A stretch of DNA of 64,000 bases, taken from positions 62,001 to 126,000 of the forward strand of contig WGMJ01000018.1 in the NCBI GenBank assembly GCA_016125135.1, in the 5' to 3' direction. This document shows positions 25,296 through 31,605 of the stretch, piece by piece (the first letter of the stretch is position 1; each line of letters starts with the position of its first letter). Under the pieces are notes generated by a model. The model had not been told where the DNA came from and ran no database searches. It saw only the letters and a list, made by a program, of their open reading frames with translations. The position numbers were made by a program, and so were the translations under genes. This DNA is from Alphaproteobacteria bacterium (GTDB lineage: Bacteria; Pseudomonadota; Alphaproteobacteria; Micavibrionales; Micavibrionaceae).

Positions 25296-25745
25296 TTAAC
25301 GCATATACTTGTCTTCCCACTCTTTAACAATCTGCAATACTTCGGGGCCGTACTCAGGGTATAATACAAACTCTATCTTCTCGTTAAACCTTGTATAGAT
25401 ATCCTGTAAGTCACTGTGGCTCTCGTAATAGTCACCGCTTAAATTATTCTTGGCAAGCGCATAAACAACACGTCGCACACCTGCCCAGTATAACATACTG
25501 ATACACATGATGCAGGGTTCCATCCCTACATAAAGTGTAACACCATCTAGTGGGCCGTGCTCGGCATAGGCAGCTGAAAGCGCTTTACCATCGGCATGTA
25601 ATAAATTGGGATAAGGCGATGAAACCGCTTCGGCAAGCACCACGCCATCTTTTACAAGAACAGCCCCTGCCGGAAAATTACCTTCTTCGTATGATTTACG
25701 GGAAAGTGCAATTGCTTTTTCTATATAGGTAGTATCGTCCATCAT
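25296..25745 (-). CDS. Cytidine/guanine-deaminase-fold protein with altered catalytic motif
   Basis: 149 residues of the CMP/dCMP-deaminase fold. The PCIMC half of the zinc site is intact (EPCIMCISM), but the partner motif reads LLHADGKALSAA, with Asp where the family has the proton-shuttling Glu of HAE. It is the last gene of the paralogue operon: the ATG at 25745 overlaps the stop of the upstream metallopeptidase-like gene (ATGATGG). The substrate is unknown; the change may shift or abolish activity. Confidence 0.85.
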   Translation of the reverse strand: MMDDTTYIEKAIALSRKSYEEGNFPAGAVLVKDGVVLAEAVSSPYPNLLHADGKALSAAYAEHGPLDGVTLYVGMEPCIMCISMLYWAGVRRVVYALAKNNLSGDYYESHSDLQDIYTRFNEKIEFVLYPEYGPEVLQIVKEWEDKYMR

Positions 25746-27112
25746 TTTGGCACACTGACCTCAGGCGCAGGCTCCAGACATATCCTATTGGTATTTATTC
25801 TGTGTTCGAAGATAGATTTAATCGTCGCGAAAGCAGGTGCAGGTAAATCTCTTACATATTTCATCATACGCTCATAAGGAACAAGCATGTCATCTTTTAA
25901 TGCAGGAAACGAAATATTCACAGCATCTACATACAGACGGGCAGCGTCCCCTGCAAGCGGCATATTTTCAAAGCCGTCGCGCTCTATTATCCCTTGGGCA
26001 ATTGCTGCAAAAGTTGCTTTATCCAGTCCGCGATTATTTGCATTCGGCATGCGGGTTATACCTAATTTCGGATCAACGCCTTCGGGAGCCAAATCTTCAA
26101 TCATCCTTGCAACAGGCAGGGCAAACGCAACCTCCCTTATAAAATCAGAGGCAATGATATTGGCAATAACATGCTCTTGCGAGCTTACAGCCGTGGACGC
26201 TCTTTCCGGATCTATTGCCAAAGCCGTTGAATGCCAAACGAATTTAGCCTCATCACCATTTACGAGATTTTGATAGGTCGCCTCATCAAACAATGATAAC
26301 GCCCGCGTATAAAGCCACTTGCGCTGGATTGCCTCAGAGTCAACAGGGTTTTCCGCCACAAAATGTTGTTGCATAAATCTGTCTCCGTAACGTTCATGGT
26401 TAACGCCATGAAAAGCGTTATGGCACACATCGCGAACGCCACTGAAATCGGCACGTGGAACATCTTCAAAATCACCATGGCCGCATTCATGCAATACCAC
26501 AAGCCGGGCCCAATCCACTTGCGTGCCGGATATATCACCAACATTACTTTTCGCAATGCCGGCAATATCACTGATGAGGTCATCGGGGAAAAAATCATCT
26601 GTTGGCGCAATTATAATCGAGATATTCGATCTGGCATCACGTCTGTGTGCATGGAAGTTAGCAGTAGCCATAGCATGCATATTTCCACAAAGCTGGACAA
26701 GCCTGTTCGCATTGCGAACAAGCTCCGCCTCACCACCAAGCATCTGGTTTTGCAGATACTCTCTTAAAACGGGCCTGTCTTCGGTCTCGGCAAAAAAACG
26801 CGTAATAGTATCACGGGCAAATGTCTGCTTATTTTCGTCCGTTGCAGTTAAAGATAAAAGCGGATTCGCTACATTTGAAAGATAGCGCAGCGTAGGGCTG
26901 AATATTTTTTTGTCGATATAAACAAACCTGACATCCGGTATCAGTTGTGCAATATTTTCAAGAAATCCACGTCCCAGAAATTCCTCATGGCCCGCATCAA
27001 TGTCAATTCTATCGCCCGCATATGCATTAGCAGTTCCTGCAAATGGCAGACCGGTGCTGGCAGCAACACCGCCTAGTCCTGTCAATATTCCTCGGCGGCT
27101 GAAACTGCGCAT
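25742..27112 (-). CDS. Tat-exported HExGH putative metallopeptidase, paralogue 4
   Basis: 456 residues. N-terminal twin-arginine signal (SRRGILTG...TANAYA). Zinc site HECGH at 208-212, then a conserved Cys at 230, and E240 in ERYGD as probable third ligand, the gluzincin layout. WARLVVLHECGH matches the other three paralogues, as do the EEFL...F-x-P phrase near residues 43-73, MPLAGDAARLYV and the C-terminal NRICLEP. Its active-site helix has Cys inside the HExxH. Family unnamed; proteolysis is inferred from the motif only. Confidence 0.8.
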   Translation of the reverse strand: MRSFSRRGILTGLGGVAASTGLPFAGTANAYAGDRIDIDAGHEEFLGRGFLENIAQLIPDVRFVYIDKKIFSPTLRYLSNVANPLLSLTATDENKQTFARDTITRFFAETEDRPVLREYLQNQMLGGEAELVRNANRLVQLCGNMHAMATANFHAHRRDARSNISIIIAPTDDFFPDDLISDIAGIAKSNVGDISGTQVDWARLVVLHECGHGDFEDVPRADFSGVRDVCHNAFHGVNHERYGDRFMQQHFVAENPVDSEAIQRKWLYTRALSLFDEATYQNLVNGDEAKFVWHSTALAIDPERASTAVSSQEHVIANIIASDFIREVAFALPVARMIEDLAPEGVDPKLGITRMPNANNRGLDKATFAAIAQGIIERDGFENMPLAGDAARLYVDAVNISFPALKDDMLVPYERMMKYVRDLPAPAFATIKSIFEHRINTNRICLEPAPEVSVPK

Positions 27113-27120
27113 ATATCACC

Positions 27121-28530
27121 CTACTTGTGCGCAAGCGAAGGCGCAACCTCGACCCTGCAAAAATTCTCGGCACGCGACGCCTCACGCACGTAAGCAGCAA
27201 CCGCTTCAATTGTTTGCTGCGGTAAAGCCAACACCTGGGTTTTTATAGTATTGTAGTCAAGTGTATCAACCATATCCGGCTTGAAGTGCCGTACAGCTTC
27301 TACATAAAGAGCTGCAGCATCACGTGCAAGCGTCATCTCGCCAAAGGCATTTCGCTCCAGTAACGCTTCCGCAATAGCCGCAAAAACACTGCGGGGTATG
27401 GTATCCTCACGGCTATGCGCAATTGTTTCACGCGGGTCATCAGGATTAATAGGTACGGGCGGTGGCGGAATCATGATTGTGTCAGGTGTCGTAAATATAA
27501 AATGTCCCGGCCGTCTGAAATCCGGCAGCGGTATGGGCGCATGCGGACCAAACAAACCATTATGATCAAGCACACCATACGCATAGCGGATCATAGAAGA
27601 TGCCGCAGCATTGGCTCCCAGCATCTGGACATTCGTAATCGATTCATCGCCGTGCAATAATTCAAGTGCGGTTGCGTGCAATGTTAATATACCGCCCTCG
27701 CTATATATATTTGTATCCAGATCGCGATTCAGTGAAAGCGCCCGCACAAGCTTCCATGTATAATTAATCGTTTCTGTATTAGCAGGGTCCTCGGCAAAAA
27801 AATTCCGGCGGTCAAAACGGTCTGCTATACGTTCAAATGACAATGCGCCAAGTCTTTCCTCACAAGTTTCCAACCGTGACGCCCCTCCATTAATAGAACC
27901 ACCTTCCAGACTATGCCCAATTTCATGTGTAATAACCTTGCGTGCCCAGTCCCGCGAAGTACCAGGGAACATAAAATCCTGTTGCCCACGCCGCAAACCT
28001 GTTGCACTTGTGAGCACGGCTTGATGATTAAAATCAGCCCCTGGTACATTCAAAATTGTCATTAAGGGTGTATGTGTGGGTTTCCGCATATGGTGATACA
28101 TACCCTGCATCGCGCACATATGCTGCTCCATACAAAACACAATCACCTCCGTTGTATTGGCAAAACCGCGCAAATACTCCCGCAAGCGGGGCCTGTCAGC
28201 CAACTCACGGTCAATCATCCGCCATAATTGCCTGTCAAAATTTCTCTGTTGTGCCGCTGTAGCGCCGGATGAAAGATAAGGGTTCGTTGTCCGCCCCAAA
28301 AACCGCATAACAGGTGCAAAAGTTTGCTTGTCAATAAAAAGAAATTCATTTTGCGGTGTCTGCGCAAGAATTCGGCGTAGATATTCCTCCCCGACGAGCG
28401 CTAGTTGTGAAGGTGAAATTTCGGCAAACCCTTCTTGTGGTAAAGCTATTTGTGCAAAGGCATCATTAGCACCCGCAACAATTGCAGTGGCAGTACTTCC
28501 AAATACAAAAGAACGACGGTCAAGCTTCAT
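27121..28530 (-). CDS. Tat-exported HExGH putative metallopeptidase, paralogue 3
   Basis: 469 residues from the start at 28530 (MKLDRRSFVFG), which overlaps the upstream stop as ATGA; an earlier in-frame ATG at 28581 would bury the twin-arginine motif. Zinc site HEIGH 202-206, conserved Cys 223, E233 and D237 in ERIADRF. It shares FPGTSRDWAR with paralogue 2, so these two are the closest pair. C-terminus ENFCRVEVAP. The stop is 8 nt before paralogue 4. Confidence 0.8.
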   Translation of the reverse strand: MKLDRRSFVFGSTATAIVAGANDAFAQIALPQEGFAEISPSQLALVGEEYLRRILAQTPQNEFLFIDKQTFAPVMRFLGRTTNPYLSSGATAAQQRNFDRQLWRMIDRELADRPRLREYLRGFANTTEVIVFCMEQHMCAMQGMYHHMRKPTHTPLMTILNVPGADFNHQAVLTSATGLRRGQQDFMFPGTSRDWARKVITHEIGHSLEGGSINGGASRLETCEERLGALSFERIADRFDRRNFFAEDPANTETINYTWKLVRALSLNRDLDTNIYSEGGILTLHATALELLHGDESITNVQMLGANAAASSMIRYAYGVLDHNGLFGPHAPIPLPDFRRPGHFIFTTPDTIMIPPPPVPINPDDPRETIAHSREDTIPRSVFAAIAEALLERNAFGEMTLARDAAALYVEAVRHFKPDMVDTLDYNTIKTQVLALPQQTIEAVAAYVREASRAENFCRVEVAPSLAHK

Positions 28531-29990
28531 GATTTTACCGGCATTGGCGGACGTGGCGGCGGCGGCGGCAGAACCGAACAATAGTTTTCCGGTGCAGCAT
28601 CGCGTGCTATCGCCCGCGCCATTTGTTGTATCGTTTCATCCGGCAACCCTCTTGTTTGGGTCCATACTCTACCAAATTCATCATTTATAGCATCTGGCAA
28701 CAGGGTTGTAACCGCGCGCAAGAAACCTAAAACGGCATCACGCGCAACCGGCATCTCATTAAAGGCCCCTTTTTGTACCAATGCCAAAGCAATACCGGCA
28801 AATTCATCAACCGTAATATTGGCCGTCCTTGCGTGTGTAATCATATGTTGTGGCGATTGCGGATTCATTTCCACATGCTCTCGTGGTGGCGGAGGTTGGG
28901 GGATAGGTATATCGAGCGCCCTGAATATTGCTTCCAGAGAGGGGTGCAAAGGTGTGAACACAGGCTCGGGCATTACCCCCATAGTCTCCAAAAGCGAGTG
29001 CGTAGCCCTTACCATTGAAACAGCAGCGGCATTTGCACCATGGCTCAAAACATTGCTGATAAGCTCTTGCTCGCGACGCGCGGGAGCCCAGTCAATCCCT
29101 GTCATATGCGGGTCCCCCAGCCTGCCTTCAAGATACGCATTCGTATCAATGCCGTAATAAAGCCCGAGCGCACGGTATGAAGCCCATGTGTCGTTTACCT
29201 TCTGTGTATTTGTCGGGGTTTCAGCACGGAAGTGAAGGCGCGCAACCCTGTCTCCAATCCTCTCATAGCCAATCTGCTCGAGCCGCCCTTCGCAGTTGGC
29301 AGGAGCACCACGATTTGTTTCTGCCGAACCATTCTCAGTGCTATGCCCTACTTCATGCAAGGCAACAAACCTTGCCCAGTCACGGCTTGTTCCGGGGAAT
29401 ATGATTTCTCGCTGGTTATATGGATACCCCAGTGAATAAGAAAAAAATTCCTGATGGTTAAAACTCGGCGCAGGCAAATTTAGAATCGTCGCATCTATGG
29501 GGTGCTCATGGTCATGCCAATGATGATAACCGCGCATCCTCGCATAAGCACCCTGGGTAATACAAAATTCCAGCAACTGGTTGATATCGGTAAAGGCGTA
29601 TAAATATTCCCGTAACCGCGGCCGGTCTTCCGTTATTTCATTTACAGCTCTCATAACACCCGCAGTAAAAAATTCTTTTTCATACGGTGTAGAGGTTGGG
29701 TTAAGAAAAGGATTATCTCTGCCTCGGAGGAACCTCTCCAAAGGAACAAAAGTGGTATCATCAACAAATATAAAGCCTTTATCTGGCGATATATCTCTTA
29801 AGCCGGCGAGAAATTCTTCACCGTAAAAAGCTTCCTGTATTTTTGAAACATCAACAAAGCTGTTAGGACGATCCGCAGATGGCGCTTCGCGCGGAACAGG
29901 CGTCACCGCCGCTGCCGTTGTGCTTAGTCCAAATGCTGTTGTTGCCAATGCAGCGGTTCCGCCGCCTAAAAGTTGTCGCCTGTTCATCAT
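28527..29990 (-). CDS. Tat-exported HExGH putative metallopeptidase, paralogue 2
   Basis: 487 residues. Twin-arginine signal NRRQLLGGG...TTAAAV. Zinc site HEVGH 212-216, Cys 233, E243 and D247 in ERIGDRV. C-terminus ENYCSVLPPPPPRPP, a proline-rich tail not seen in the others. It has its own likely promoter at 30019-30048 and is followed by paralogue 3 with a 4-nt overlap. The start may be either of two adjacent ATGs (29990 or 29987). Confidence 0.8.
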   Translation of the reverse strand: MMNRRQLLGGGTAALATTAFGLSTTAAAVTPVPREAPSADRPNSFVDVSKIQEAFYGEEFLAGLRDISPDKGFIFVDDTTFVPLERFLRGRDNPFLNPTSTPYEKEFFTAGVMRAVNEITEDRPRLREYLYAFTDINQLLEFCITQGAYARMRGYHHWHDHEHPIDATILNLPAPSFNHQEFFSYSLGYPYNQREIIFPGTSRDWARFVALHEVGHSTENGSAETNRGAPANCEGRLEQIGYERIGDRVARLHFRAETPTNTQKVNDTWASYRALGLYYGIDTNAYLEGRLGDPHMTGIDWAPARREQELISNVLSHGANAAAVSMVRATHSLLETMGVMPEPVFTPLHPSLEAIFRALDIPIPQPPPPREHVEMNPQSPQHMITHARTANITVDEFAGIALALVQKGAFNEMPVARDAVLGFLRAVTTLLPDAINDEFGRVWTQTRGLPDETIQQMARAIARDAAPENYCSVLPPPPPRPPMPVKS

Positions 29991-30018
29991 TTACTCTTTT
30001 TGTTATTTAATTGGCTTT

Positions 30019-30048
30019 ATAGTAGTAAAAAGAGTAAAAAAAGGTCAA
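30019..30048 (-). promoter_or_regulatory. Promoter for paralogues 2-4 and the deaminase gene
   Basis: On the minus strand TTGACC (30048-30043), 18-bp spacer, TACTAT (30024-30019), leaving about 22 nt of leader before the ATG. The T-rich spacer and the preceding GAATT-x-x-CTTGAC resemble the promoter of paralogue 1, as if the promoter was duplicated together with the gene. Confidence 0.55.
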
Positions 30049-30114
30049 GACAATTCATAATTTTAAAATAAAATTACTCATATTGGTAATTTTTAGCTTC
30101 GCATTGCAGTTGAT

Positions 30115-31569
30115 TTAAGGGGTAAAAAAGTCGGAAACCACAACAGGCTCCACTCTACAAAAGTTTCTTTCCGTGGCAGAAGAAGTTATAGCCCTTTTCA
30201 GCGCAATAATTTGATCCTCAGGCAGGTTTCTAGCAGCCTCCTTTATATCGATATAACCCTGCCCCATCTTTGCAATAGCATCAGGTATAAATCTATGTGC
30301 ACCTCTTACAAAAAGTGTAACCAGATCTTTAGCAACAGGCATGTCTGCAAAAGCATTAGAATCTCTCTCAAGTAGCCCCTCAGCAACTGCACAAAAAGTT
30401 TCTATATCCGATATAAGTAAACCACCCGCCGCAATCATTGATTCAGGATTACCGGCTGCATAATCAAAACCAGCAGGAAGAGAGGCGTTTACACCAGCTG
30501 CAGTGGCTAGCCTGTCCTCTGGCGTAAGCATGTTATACTCCGCATAAGCAAAAGCGCCTCTTATCATTGAGGTCGCCATCACATTAAACGCTAAATATTC
30601 CTCGGAAGAAACAGACGTTGCGCTTCTCTCAGGCATCAAAGCCAAAGCTGTTGCATGGGAATGAAAGCGCGAACTCATCCCGCTTGTATAGTCCTCTAAA
30701 TTGGCCTCCCTGTAGAGACTACCTGCACGCGCCATAAGCCAGACGTCCAATACGGCAGCTTGATCAGAAGCCGCAACGAGGTCAAAATTATCGAGCATAA
30801 ACTCATCAGCAAAAATTTCCTGCTCTATAGTCTTAAGCGCATTATTACAGTGCATTTGCAGGGTGGTTTGCTCCAAAACGGGCCCTCCGGATTCCGCATG
30901 GCCAACCTCATGCAGGGTCATAAGTCTGGCATAATCCTTATCACCTCCAGGAATATCCATCATGGCTGCCCTATTCTCAGTATAGGCCCCGCCAAACATT
31001 CTGACTATAAAACGCTTACGATCAAATCCATTCGCCGGCGCTAGAATAATTGATACCCCCCCTCCAAATGAGGTCGCCGCAAAGTTGCCCTCCTCTGCCA
31101 GATCCTGTATATCAAGACATGACTGCATAGTAGATTTTATACCCTCGACCCAATCACTACCTGCTTCAACCAGTTTATTATTAAAGGCTTCAGCCAGTAA
31201 CGGCCGTCCCTGTACAATTTTTTCCAGCTCTGCAATTACCAGCTCTGCTGCTGCCTCTTTTTGCCCATGGGAAGCATCATTGCTTCTAAGGATTTCCATC
31301 ACACCACTATCAGCAAGCGCTTTTAATGGGGCAAAGGTTTTGGGTGTTATAAAAGCAAGGCGTGACCGTGATAACCTGCTACTGATGCCTTGAATAAAGC
31401 CAGCGCCTAAATATTCTTTTTGGTCTTCCGCAATGTCGAGATTGGGCAAGTATGGCTCCTTGCCAATCTTGAACCGCACAGCGCTCACTTCCGCGGCATG
31501 CGCATGCCCAGCATTTGCACCAAACACCGTAGCAGCAGCAGCGCCCAAGAATAGACGTCTATCAATCAT
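30115..31569 (-). CDS. Tat-exported HExGH putative metallopeptidase, paralogue 1
   Basis: 484 residues, the most diverged and promoter-proximal copy. Twin-arginine signal IDRRLFLGAA...GHAHAAEV. Zinc site HEVGH 220-224, Cys 241, E251 and D255 in EIFADEF. The C-terminus ERNFCRVEP keeps the shared end motif. The promoter at 31577-31605 puts transcription start at about the A of the ATG, so this mRNA may be leaderless; no Shine-Dalgarno is visible. Confidence 0.8.
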   Translation of the reverse strand: MIDRRLFLGAAAATVFGANAGHAHAAEVSAVRFKIGKEPYLPNLDIAEDQKEYLGAGFIQGISSRLSRSRLAFITPKTFAPLKALADSGVMEILRSNDASHGQKEAAAELVIAELEKIVQGRPLLAEAFNNKLVEAGSDWVEGIKSTMQSCLDIQDLAEEGNFAATSFGGGVSIILAPANGFDRKRFIVRMFGGAYTENRAAMMDIPGGDKDYARLMTLHEVGHAESGGPVLEQTTLQMHCNNALKTIEQEIFADEFMLDNFDLVAASDQAAVLDVWLMARAGSLYREANLEDYTSGMSSRFHSHATALALMPERSATSVSSEEYLAFNVMATSMIRGAFAYAEYNMLTPEDRLATAAGVNASLPAGFDYAAGNPESMIAAGGLLISDIETFCAVAEGLLERDSNAFADMPVAKDLVTLFVRGAHRFIPDAIAKMGQGYIDIKEAARNLPEDQIIALKRAITSSATERNFCRVEPVVVSDFFTP

Positions 31570-31576
31570 GAGTAAA

Positions 31577-31605
31577 ATATTATGTTAAATATAGAGGAAA
31601 GTCAA
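31577..31605 (-). promoter_or_regulatory. Promoter of the paralogue operon, apparently leaderless
   Basis: Minus strand TTGACT (31605-31600), 17-bp spacer, TAATAT (31582-31577). The ATG of paralogue 1 begins 7 nt after the -10 hexamer. Confidence 0.65.

What the first reader, a model, noticed from the sequence alone, without database searches (positions are those of the whole stretch)
25296..31569. Operon of four Tat-exported HExGH protein paralogues ending in a deaminase-fold gene
Seen: four consecutive minus-strand genes, each with a twin-arginine signal, an HExGH site preceded by (D/R)-x-(W/Y)-A-R, a Cys 17-18 residues after it, a Glu at 27-28 with D four further on, and a C-terminal N-x-C-x-V/L-like end. 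All other residues have diverged, so these are old duplicates kept active. Three keep HE(V/I)GH and one has HECGH. Known: HExxH with a downstream E-x-x-(A/G)-D is the gluzincin layout; Tat export implies folding or cofactor loading in the cytoplasm. Inferred: a secreted metalloenzyme family used in nutrition, predation or competition. I do not recognise the family.
Basis: partly seen in the sequence, partly recalled or inferred. Interest (0 to 1): 0.85.

Follow-up and report, generated by a model that had tools for sequence, protein, structure and literature searches.

The report
Exported zinc-peptidase family in Micavibrio relatives
Four neighbouring genes encode exported proteins that look like zinc-dependent peptidases of a family missing from the searched reference libraries, and relatives of predatory Micavibrio bacteria carry many highly diverged copies of it.

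Summary
Four minus-strand genes (25742-31569) encode paralogues with Tat-type signals and HE[VIC]GH, a Cys 17-18 residues later, a Glu at +27/28 and an Asp four further on; a deaminase-fold gene follows. Further invariant residues were missed, among them an Arg and a His-x-Thr downstream. None of 56 aligned members matches Pfam-A or NCBIfam at E<=0.01. A profile finds a second four-gene array in the same genome and 117 matches in 56 of 104 genomes of its GTDB family, which is Micavibrionaceae: one genome has exactly the published length of M. aeruginosavorus ARL-13. AlphaFold models (pLDDT 80.5, 81.4) resemble gluzincins; dipeptidyl peptidase III (M49) heads both Foldseek lists, but no match is statistically strong. 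Best reading: a new DPP III-like gluzincin family, duplicated and diversified in predator relatives and exported by several routes. Members lie between pheS and pheT in six genomes. Peptidase activity and a role in predation are inferred; zinc geometry could not be measured without coordinates.

The parts
30115..31569 (-). paralogue 1 (P0001, 484 aa), Tat-type signal MIDRRLFLG
28527..29990 (-). paralogue 2 (P0002, 487 aa), Tat-type signal MMNRRQLLGG
27121..28530 (-). paralogue 3 (P0003, 469 aa from ATG), Tat-type signal MKLDRRSFVFG; start overlaps the stop of paralogue 2
25742..27112 (-). paralogue 4 (P0004, 456 aa), Tat-type signal SRRGILTG; AlphaFold model
25296..25745 (-). deaminase-fold protein (P0005, 149 aa); PCxxC kept, HAE replaced by HAD
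30898..30912 (-). HEVGH of paralogue 1
29343..29357 (-). HEVGH of paralogue 2
27913..27927 (-). HEIGH of paralogue 3
26477..26491 (-). HECGH of paralogue 4
30805..30819 (-). ExxxD (EIFAD), proposed third zinc ligand plus Asp, paralogue 1
29250..29264 (-). ExxxD (ERIGD), paralogue 2
27820..27834 (-). ExxxD (ERIAD), paralogue 3
26381..26395 (-). ExxxD (ERYGD), paralogue 4
30649..30657 (-). HAT, proposed transition-state His, paralogue 1 (conserved Arg at 30727-30729)
29100..29108 (-). HMT, paralogue 2 (Arg at 29172-29174)
27670..27678 (-). HAT, paralogue 3 (Arg at 27742-27744)
26225..26233 (-). HST, paralogue 4 (Arg at 26303-26305)
31576..31605 (-). sigma-70-like site TTGACT upstream of paralogue 1 (consensus match only; number of such sites in the region not above shuffles)
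30019..30048 (-). sigma-70-like site TTGACC upstream of paralogue 2 (consensus match only)

Best explanation
The four proteins are exported zinc metallopeptidases of a family not in the searched libraries. Its catalytic layout is that of gluzincins, and its nearest known kin is probably the upper (zinc) domain of dipeptidyl peptidase III (M49). Proposed mechanism: HExxH gives two zinc ligands and the general base; the Glu of ExxxD is the third ligand; its Asp orients a ligand His; the downstream Arg and His (HxT) stabilise the transition state. The four fold, and probably load metal, in the cytoplasm and cross the inner membrane by Tat. They arose by duplication within this lineage; a Sec- or lipoprotein-type set of four arose separately in the same genome. 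Shown: sequences, paralogy, conservation, family spread, fold-level resemblance. Inferred: metal, peptidase activity, roles of Arg and His, periplasmic location, and use on prey-derived or envelope peptides. The confidence below is for 'exported gluzincin-type peptidase'; for 'M49 is the nearest kin' it is about 0.5.
For: Seven residues (H, E, H, E, D, R, H) invariant in 19 sequences at 20% mean column identity; all seven in 64 of 72 domain matches inside the family, 7 more with the last His in a gap, 1 with Glu for Asp; 78 of 91 when 19 weak matches from other families of the order are added. The 19-row profile hits M49 5zum in the PDB sequences (E 0.0049, the only gluzincin of 3 hits). Foldseek's first row is DPP III 6eom for both models (E 0.76 and 0.13). 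VIA-align: first model DPP III 5zum Z 7.8 (rmsd 4.4, 198 aligned), 5yfd Z 7.2 (rmsd 3.9, 189 aligned), aminopeptidase N 4xmz Z 5.8 (rmsd 3.6, 169 aligned), thermolysin 4tnl Z 4.5 (rmsd 7.7, 182 aligned); second model aminopeptidase N 4f5c Z 6.0 (rmsd 5.8, 192 aligned), DPP III 6eom Z 5.0 (rmsd 4.3, 194 aligned), BepA Z 4.6 (rmsd 5.3, 139 aligned). hhalign, 19-row profile: M49 38.2 (E 8.8e-5) with HExxH and E..AD in register, M1 17.6, best of 148 neighbour clusters 25.0 and next 22.7. His-to-Glu spacing is 26-30 in 25 of the 26 M49 sequences (one had no EExxAD to measure) and 27-28 in the window. Two members have HExxGH, the classical M49 form, while some studied DPP III have HExxH. Ortholog pairs between G021 and G076 show dN/dS 0.16, 0.20 and 0.32, the last with saturated dS. 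TatC present. Tree: the window four form one clade (100/99), the second array another (100/100).
Against: No structural match is significant: Foldseek E above 0.1, VIA Z under 8, and the second model's best row is M1, with DPP III 1.0 Z unit below it. With a 70-row profile the PDB hit to DPP III vanished; the 9 rows returned were chance matches. With that profile hhalign gave M49 28.6 (12% probability) or 24.9 in a rerun with other settings, against 27.5 for a neighbour cluster with HELGH that resembles a weak family match, and 21.1 for the next. His-to-Glu spacing varies from 12 to 39 across the family. No coordinates were available to measure zinc geometry or Cys distances. No activity data. 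The window organism is not known to be a predator.
Confidence: 0.72

Rival explanations
1. Gluzincin peptidases with no special kinship to M49; the DPP III resemblance is only the shared gluzincin core.
For: Aminopeptidase N (M1), thermolysin, BepA and other gluzincins score within about 3 Z units, and M1 heads one list; the larger profile loses the M49 hit; E-xxx-D plus Arg and His also occur in thermolysin (recalled).
Against: DPP III is Foldseek's first row for both models and outscored M1 in profile-profile tests; spacing matches M49 in the window members; HExxGH variants occur.
Confidence: 0.4
2. Catalytically dead or non-peptidase zinc proteins (binding, scaffolding, immunity).
For: Very fast divergence outside the motif; long branches throughout the tree.
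Against: The seven catalytic-type residues are kept in 64 of 72 domain matches inside the family; dN/dS 0.16-0.32 in three pairs.
Confidence: 0.12
3. Effectors delivered into or onto prey or competitors rather than nutritional enzymes.
For: Diversity, tandem arrays and a recurrent genomic site; the host family contains obligate epibiotic predators; many signal-less members share a conserved C-terminal module.
Against: No delivery assay; the window four have ordinary Tat-type signals, which lead to the periplasm; the module is almost confined to this family in the 104 genomes.
Confidence: 0.3
4. Relatives of DUF6782 / Peptidase_M91 (putative metallopeptidase and effector families).
For: The family profile weakly picks up a DUF6782 protein in the same order (L123: E 4.3e-5; Pfam DUF6782 6.2e-32, M91 8.3e-4).
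Against: One of 19 members gives a weak DUF6782 match (E 0.045) and none of 56 at E<=0.01.
Confidence: 0.15

Closest known systems
Peptidase family M49 (dipeptidyl peptidase III), short bacterial type (Caldithrix abyssi 6eom, Corallococcus 5zum)
   Same: Order HExx(G)H ... E-x-x-[AG]-D ... R ... H; His-to-Glu spacing of the window members; helical zinc domain; both penta- and hexapeptide zinc motifs occur.
   Different: No Pfam M49 match; no conserved EE and R/K in the second motif; few predicted strands; exported; tandemly duplicated; M49 itself not found in this genome.
Gluzincins M1 (aminopeptidase N) and M4 (thermolysin)
   Same: HExxH plus downstream Glu; resemblance seen by VIA-align (Z up to 6.0 and 4.5).
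   Different: Shorter His-Glu spacing in M1 and M4 (recalled); M1 profile scores at background; M4 profiles not tested.
DUF6782 / Peptidase_M91
   Same: HExxH putative metallopeptidases, one of them in the same order, weakly found by the family profile.
   Different: None of 56 members matches at E<=0.01.
Hydrolytic enzymes described for M. aeruginosavorus ARL-13 (PMC3189940)
   Same: Same family of bacteria; the ARL-13-length genome has three members.
   Different: The passages that I saw name no such family; the supplementary enzyme list was not read, so these genes may be listed there.

Membership tests
Peptidase M49 (DPP III) | match to Pfam PF03571 | tested here: not met
   no M49 row for the four at E<=1 nor for 56 members at E<=0.01; PF03571 search of the own genome: no match
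Peptidase M49 (DPP III) | HEXXGH or HEXXH zinc motif | tested here: met
   HExGH in four of four; HExxGH in L075 and L098
Peptidase M49 (DPP III) | second motif EExR(K)A(E/D) | tested here: not met
   E-x-x-[AG]-D kept, but the preceding Glu and the R/K are not conserved
Peptidase M49 (DPP III) | two domains, with a five-stranded beta structure | tested here: inconclusive
   listed strands of three or more residues: two in one model, three in the other; no coordinates to inspect
Peptidase M49 (DPP III) | shared fold of the zinc domain | tested here: inconclusive
   Z 7.8 (rmsd 4.4, 198 aligned) and 5.0 (rmsd 4.3, 194 aligned); Foldseek E 0.76 and 0.13
Gluzincins (clan MA(E)) | HExxH plus downstream Glu with an Asp at +4 | tested here: met
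   71 of 72 domain matches inside the family have H, E, H, E, D
Gluzincins (clan MA(E)) | zinc-site geometry and zinc bound | not testable with these tools
   models given without coordinates
Tat substrates | twin-arginine signal and a Tat translocase in the genome | tested here: met
   RR motifs in four of four by eye; Pfam TAT_signal below cut-off in two; TatC E 2.2e-69; export itself not tested

The most novel reading that the evidence does not exclude
A previously uncatalogued zinc-peptidase family is the diversifying contact arsenal of Micavibrio-type predators: members turn over at fixed genomic sites (between pheS and pheT), use several export routes, and the signal-less ones carry a conserved C-terminal module that acts as a new delivery signal and can sit on other cargo.
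Probability: 0.2. Interest if true: 0.8.

Novelty: new variant of a known kind. Interest (0 to 1): 0.62.

Why it matters
Micavibrio relatives include epibiotic predators whose killing and feeding enzymes are little characterised. A large, fast-diverging peptidase family with intact catalytic residues that the searched libraries miss gives concrete candidates to test in a cultured predator, and may be a compact relative of DPP III.

Tried and rejected
Profile A1 in genome contigs found no relative. The 70-row profile lost the DPP III hit, so the sequence link to M49 is fragile. BFVD gave no match at E<=0.001. PADLOC, PHROGs and NCBIfam gave nothing for the peptidases. The C-terminal module as a general signal: 12 of 104 genomes match at E<=0.01, 24 rows. 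The 21 strongest rows lie in family members (19 by coordinates, two by frame length and position); 19 of the 21 are the seeds themselves, so only two are new. One weaker row (E 2.0e-5) lies in a 307-aa frame without HExxH between pheS-like and pheT-like frames of G070; the two weakest rows were not examined. Matches outside the family in the order (20 of 38 genomes) are weak and include a DUF6782 protein, so I do not count them as members. In the class sample eight genomes outside the family match, one well (G241, E 4.2e-13); it was not examined. The ninth match of the own genome (E 0.016) was dropped. The signal-peptide script (68 of 90 frames none, 19 Sec-like, 3 Tat) was too crude: it missed three of the four window signals. 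Rows left out: the tree has 72 of 91 domain matches, the 19 others being those of other families; alignment A5 has 70 of 91; fold alignments have 56 and 57 of the 71 family frames. Nine of the 56 genomes counted had supplied seed sequences. Neighbour clusters used as a null are open frames, antisense ones included.
Full report
OBSERVATION. Four minus-strand genes between 25742 and 31569 and a deaminase-fold gene at 25296-25745 are present as described. Motif positions were recomputed: HExGH, Cys at +17/+17/+17/+18, Glu at +27/+27/+27/+28, Asp at Glu+4. The proteins are 26-30% identical to the first and share 52 invariant columns, among them D-[WY]-A-R, an Arg and a His-x-Thr. Genes 2-5 are tightly packed; gene 1 ends 124 bp before gene 2, so the array may be two transcription units. 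Promoter-like and terminator-like sites are no more common than in shuffles.

NOT IN THE SEARCHED LIBRARIES. The four match no Pfam-A family except weak noise and sub-threshold TAT_signal, and none in NCBIfam or PADLOC. None of 56 aligned members matches Pfam-A or NCBIfam at E<=0.01, and none of 19 matches PHROGs.

FAMILY. A profile of the four matched 10 of 58 genomes, the own one included. A core profile of 19 sequences (A3) found eight members in the own genome, four in the window and four in a second array at G000:C17:165.2-170.4 kb, plus a ninth weak match that I do not count. In the GTDB family 56 of 104 genomes match at E<=0.001, with 117 matches in all; nine of these genomes had supplied seeds. 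In the order 74 of 142 match; outside the family that is 20 of 38, weak, one of them a DUF6782 protein. In a class sample 10 of 385 match, two of them inside the family. The family is Micavibrionaceae: G076 is one contig of 2,481,983 bases, the length printed for M. aeruginosavorus ARL-13 (PMC3189940, passages seen); that this GTDB family bears that name is recalled. The best named match to the neighbouring uracil-DNA glycosylase is Micavibrio sp. UBA6212, 74%; in the 1 kb fetched behind it there is no peptidase of this kind.

CATALYTIC RESIDUES. Of 72 domain matches inside the family, 64 keep H-E-H-E-D-R-H, 7 have the last His in a gap and 1 has Glu for Asp; of 19 weak matches from other families of the order, 14 keep all seven. 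Two members have HExxGH. His-Glu spacing is 12-39, median 20, in the family; 27-28 in the window. Three ortholog pairs between G021 and G076 have dN/dS 0.16, 0.20 and 0.32, the last with saturated dS.

STRUCTURE. AlphaFold2 models: P0004 with 56 sequences, pLDDT 80.5, pTM 0.82; a member of the ARL-13-length genome with 57 sequences, 81.4 and 0.80. HExxH lies in one helix and the Glu in the next in both, as expected for gluzincins (recalled). Foldseek ranks DPP III 6eom first for both, without significance. All are under 8 and could reflect a common arrangement.

LINK TO M49. The 19-row profile hit 5zum at E 0.0049; the 70-row profile did not. hhalign to 26 M49 sequences scored 38.2 with the 19-row profile and 28.6 or 24.9 (other settings) with the 70-row one. 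M1 scored 17.6 and 18.3. Of 148 neighbour clusters the best (25.0 and 27.5) contains HELGH and resembles a weak family match; the next scored 22.7 and 21.1. Studied DPP III have both HEXXGH and HEXXH, and a second motif EExR(K)AE(D) (PMC5805324 and PMC9820243, passages seen). M49 is not found in the own genome nor in 142 sampled genomes of the class; a phylum sample has it in 26 of 398, six of them of the same class. I therefore call the family DPP III-like, not a member of M49.

EVOLUTION AND PLACE. In a 72-row tree the window four form one clade (100/99) and the second array another (100/100). The other two clear Tat-type rows (L025, L077) sit on a separate supported branch of an unresolved backbone; one origin of the Tat type is not ruled out. 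Members lie between pheS and pheT in 6 of the 52 family loci scanned, each from a different genome, and next to pheS in two more; these loci are a chosen part of the matches. The third gene of the second array is shortened by a frame change near its end.

EXPORT. By the printed N-termini, the window four, L025 and L077 have clear Tat-type starts; the second array has Sec-like starts, one with a lipobox by eye; most of the 90 frames have no recognisable signal by a crude script. Nineteen aligned tails of signal-less members share a C-terminal module of about 50 residues. In 104 genomes it has 24 matches: 21 strong ones in family members, 19 of these being the seeds, one weak one in a 307-aa frame without HExxH at the pheS-pheT site of G070, and two marginal ones.

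LITERATURE. PMC3189940 reports Tat and Sec systems, many hydrolases and up-regulated secretion in the attachment phase of ARL-13 (passages seen). Searches: Micavibrio with HExxH, no paper; Micavibrionaceae with peptidase, two papers (listing); Micavibrio with metalloprotease and predat, ten (listing), one of them on prey metalloproteases. None was read for this family, so I say only that these searches did not show it.

JUDGEMENT. Zinc gluzincin: likely. Nearest to DPP III: about even odds against a looser gluzincin kinship. Use in predation: plausible and untested.

Noticed in passing
G000:C17:165200-170440 (L018:3205-8441): Second array of four paralogues with Sec-like or lipoprotein signals; the third gene is shortened by a frame change near its 3' end.
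   Followed up: partly
L079, L083, L084, L128, L023, L073 and others: Signal-less family members share a conserved C-terminal module of about 50 residues (GGxPxVxLxDGDxA...IGGVxAxxFFAxxADPxLAxQR), perhaps a targeting signal.
   Followed up: yes
L219 (G070:C33:26956-27060): A 307-aa frame without HExxH, between pheS-like and pheT-like frames, ends in a weak match to the same module.
   Followed up: partly
L022, L027, L029, L069, L071, L090: Highly diverged family members sit between pheS and pheT on the same strand.
   Followed up: yes
25296-25745: Deaminase-fold protein keeps PCxxC but has HAD where the two solved homologues shown have HAE.
   Followed up: partly
L083:8535-10850: One open frame of 772 aa holds two copies of the peptidase domain.
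   Followed up: no
L075 and L098: Two family members carry HExxGH in place of HExxH.
   Followed up: partly
L020:2125-3309 (G000:C17, near 134835): Weak ninth match (E 0.016) in the own genome, an HEAAH protein, not counted.
   Followed up: no
L129 (G241:C6:81764-82192): The best match outside the family (E 4.2e-13) in a genome of another family of the class.
   Followed up: no
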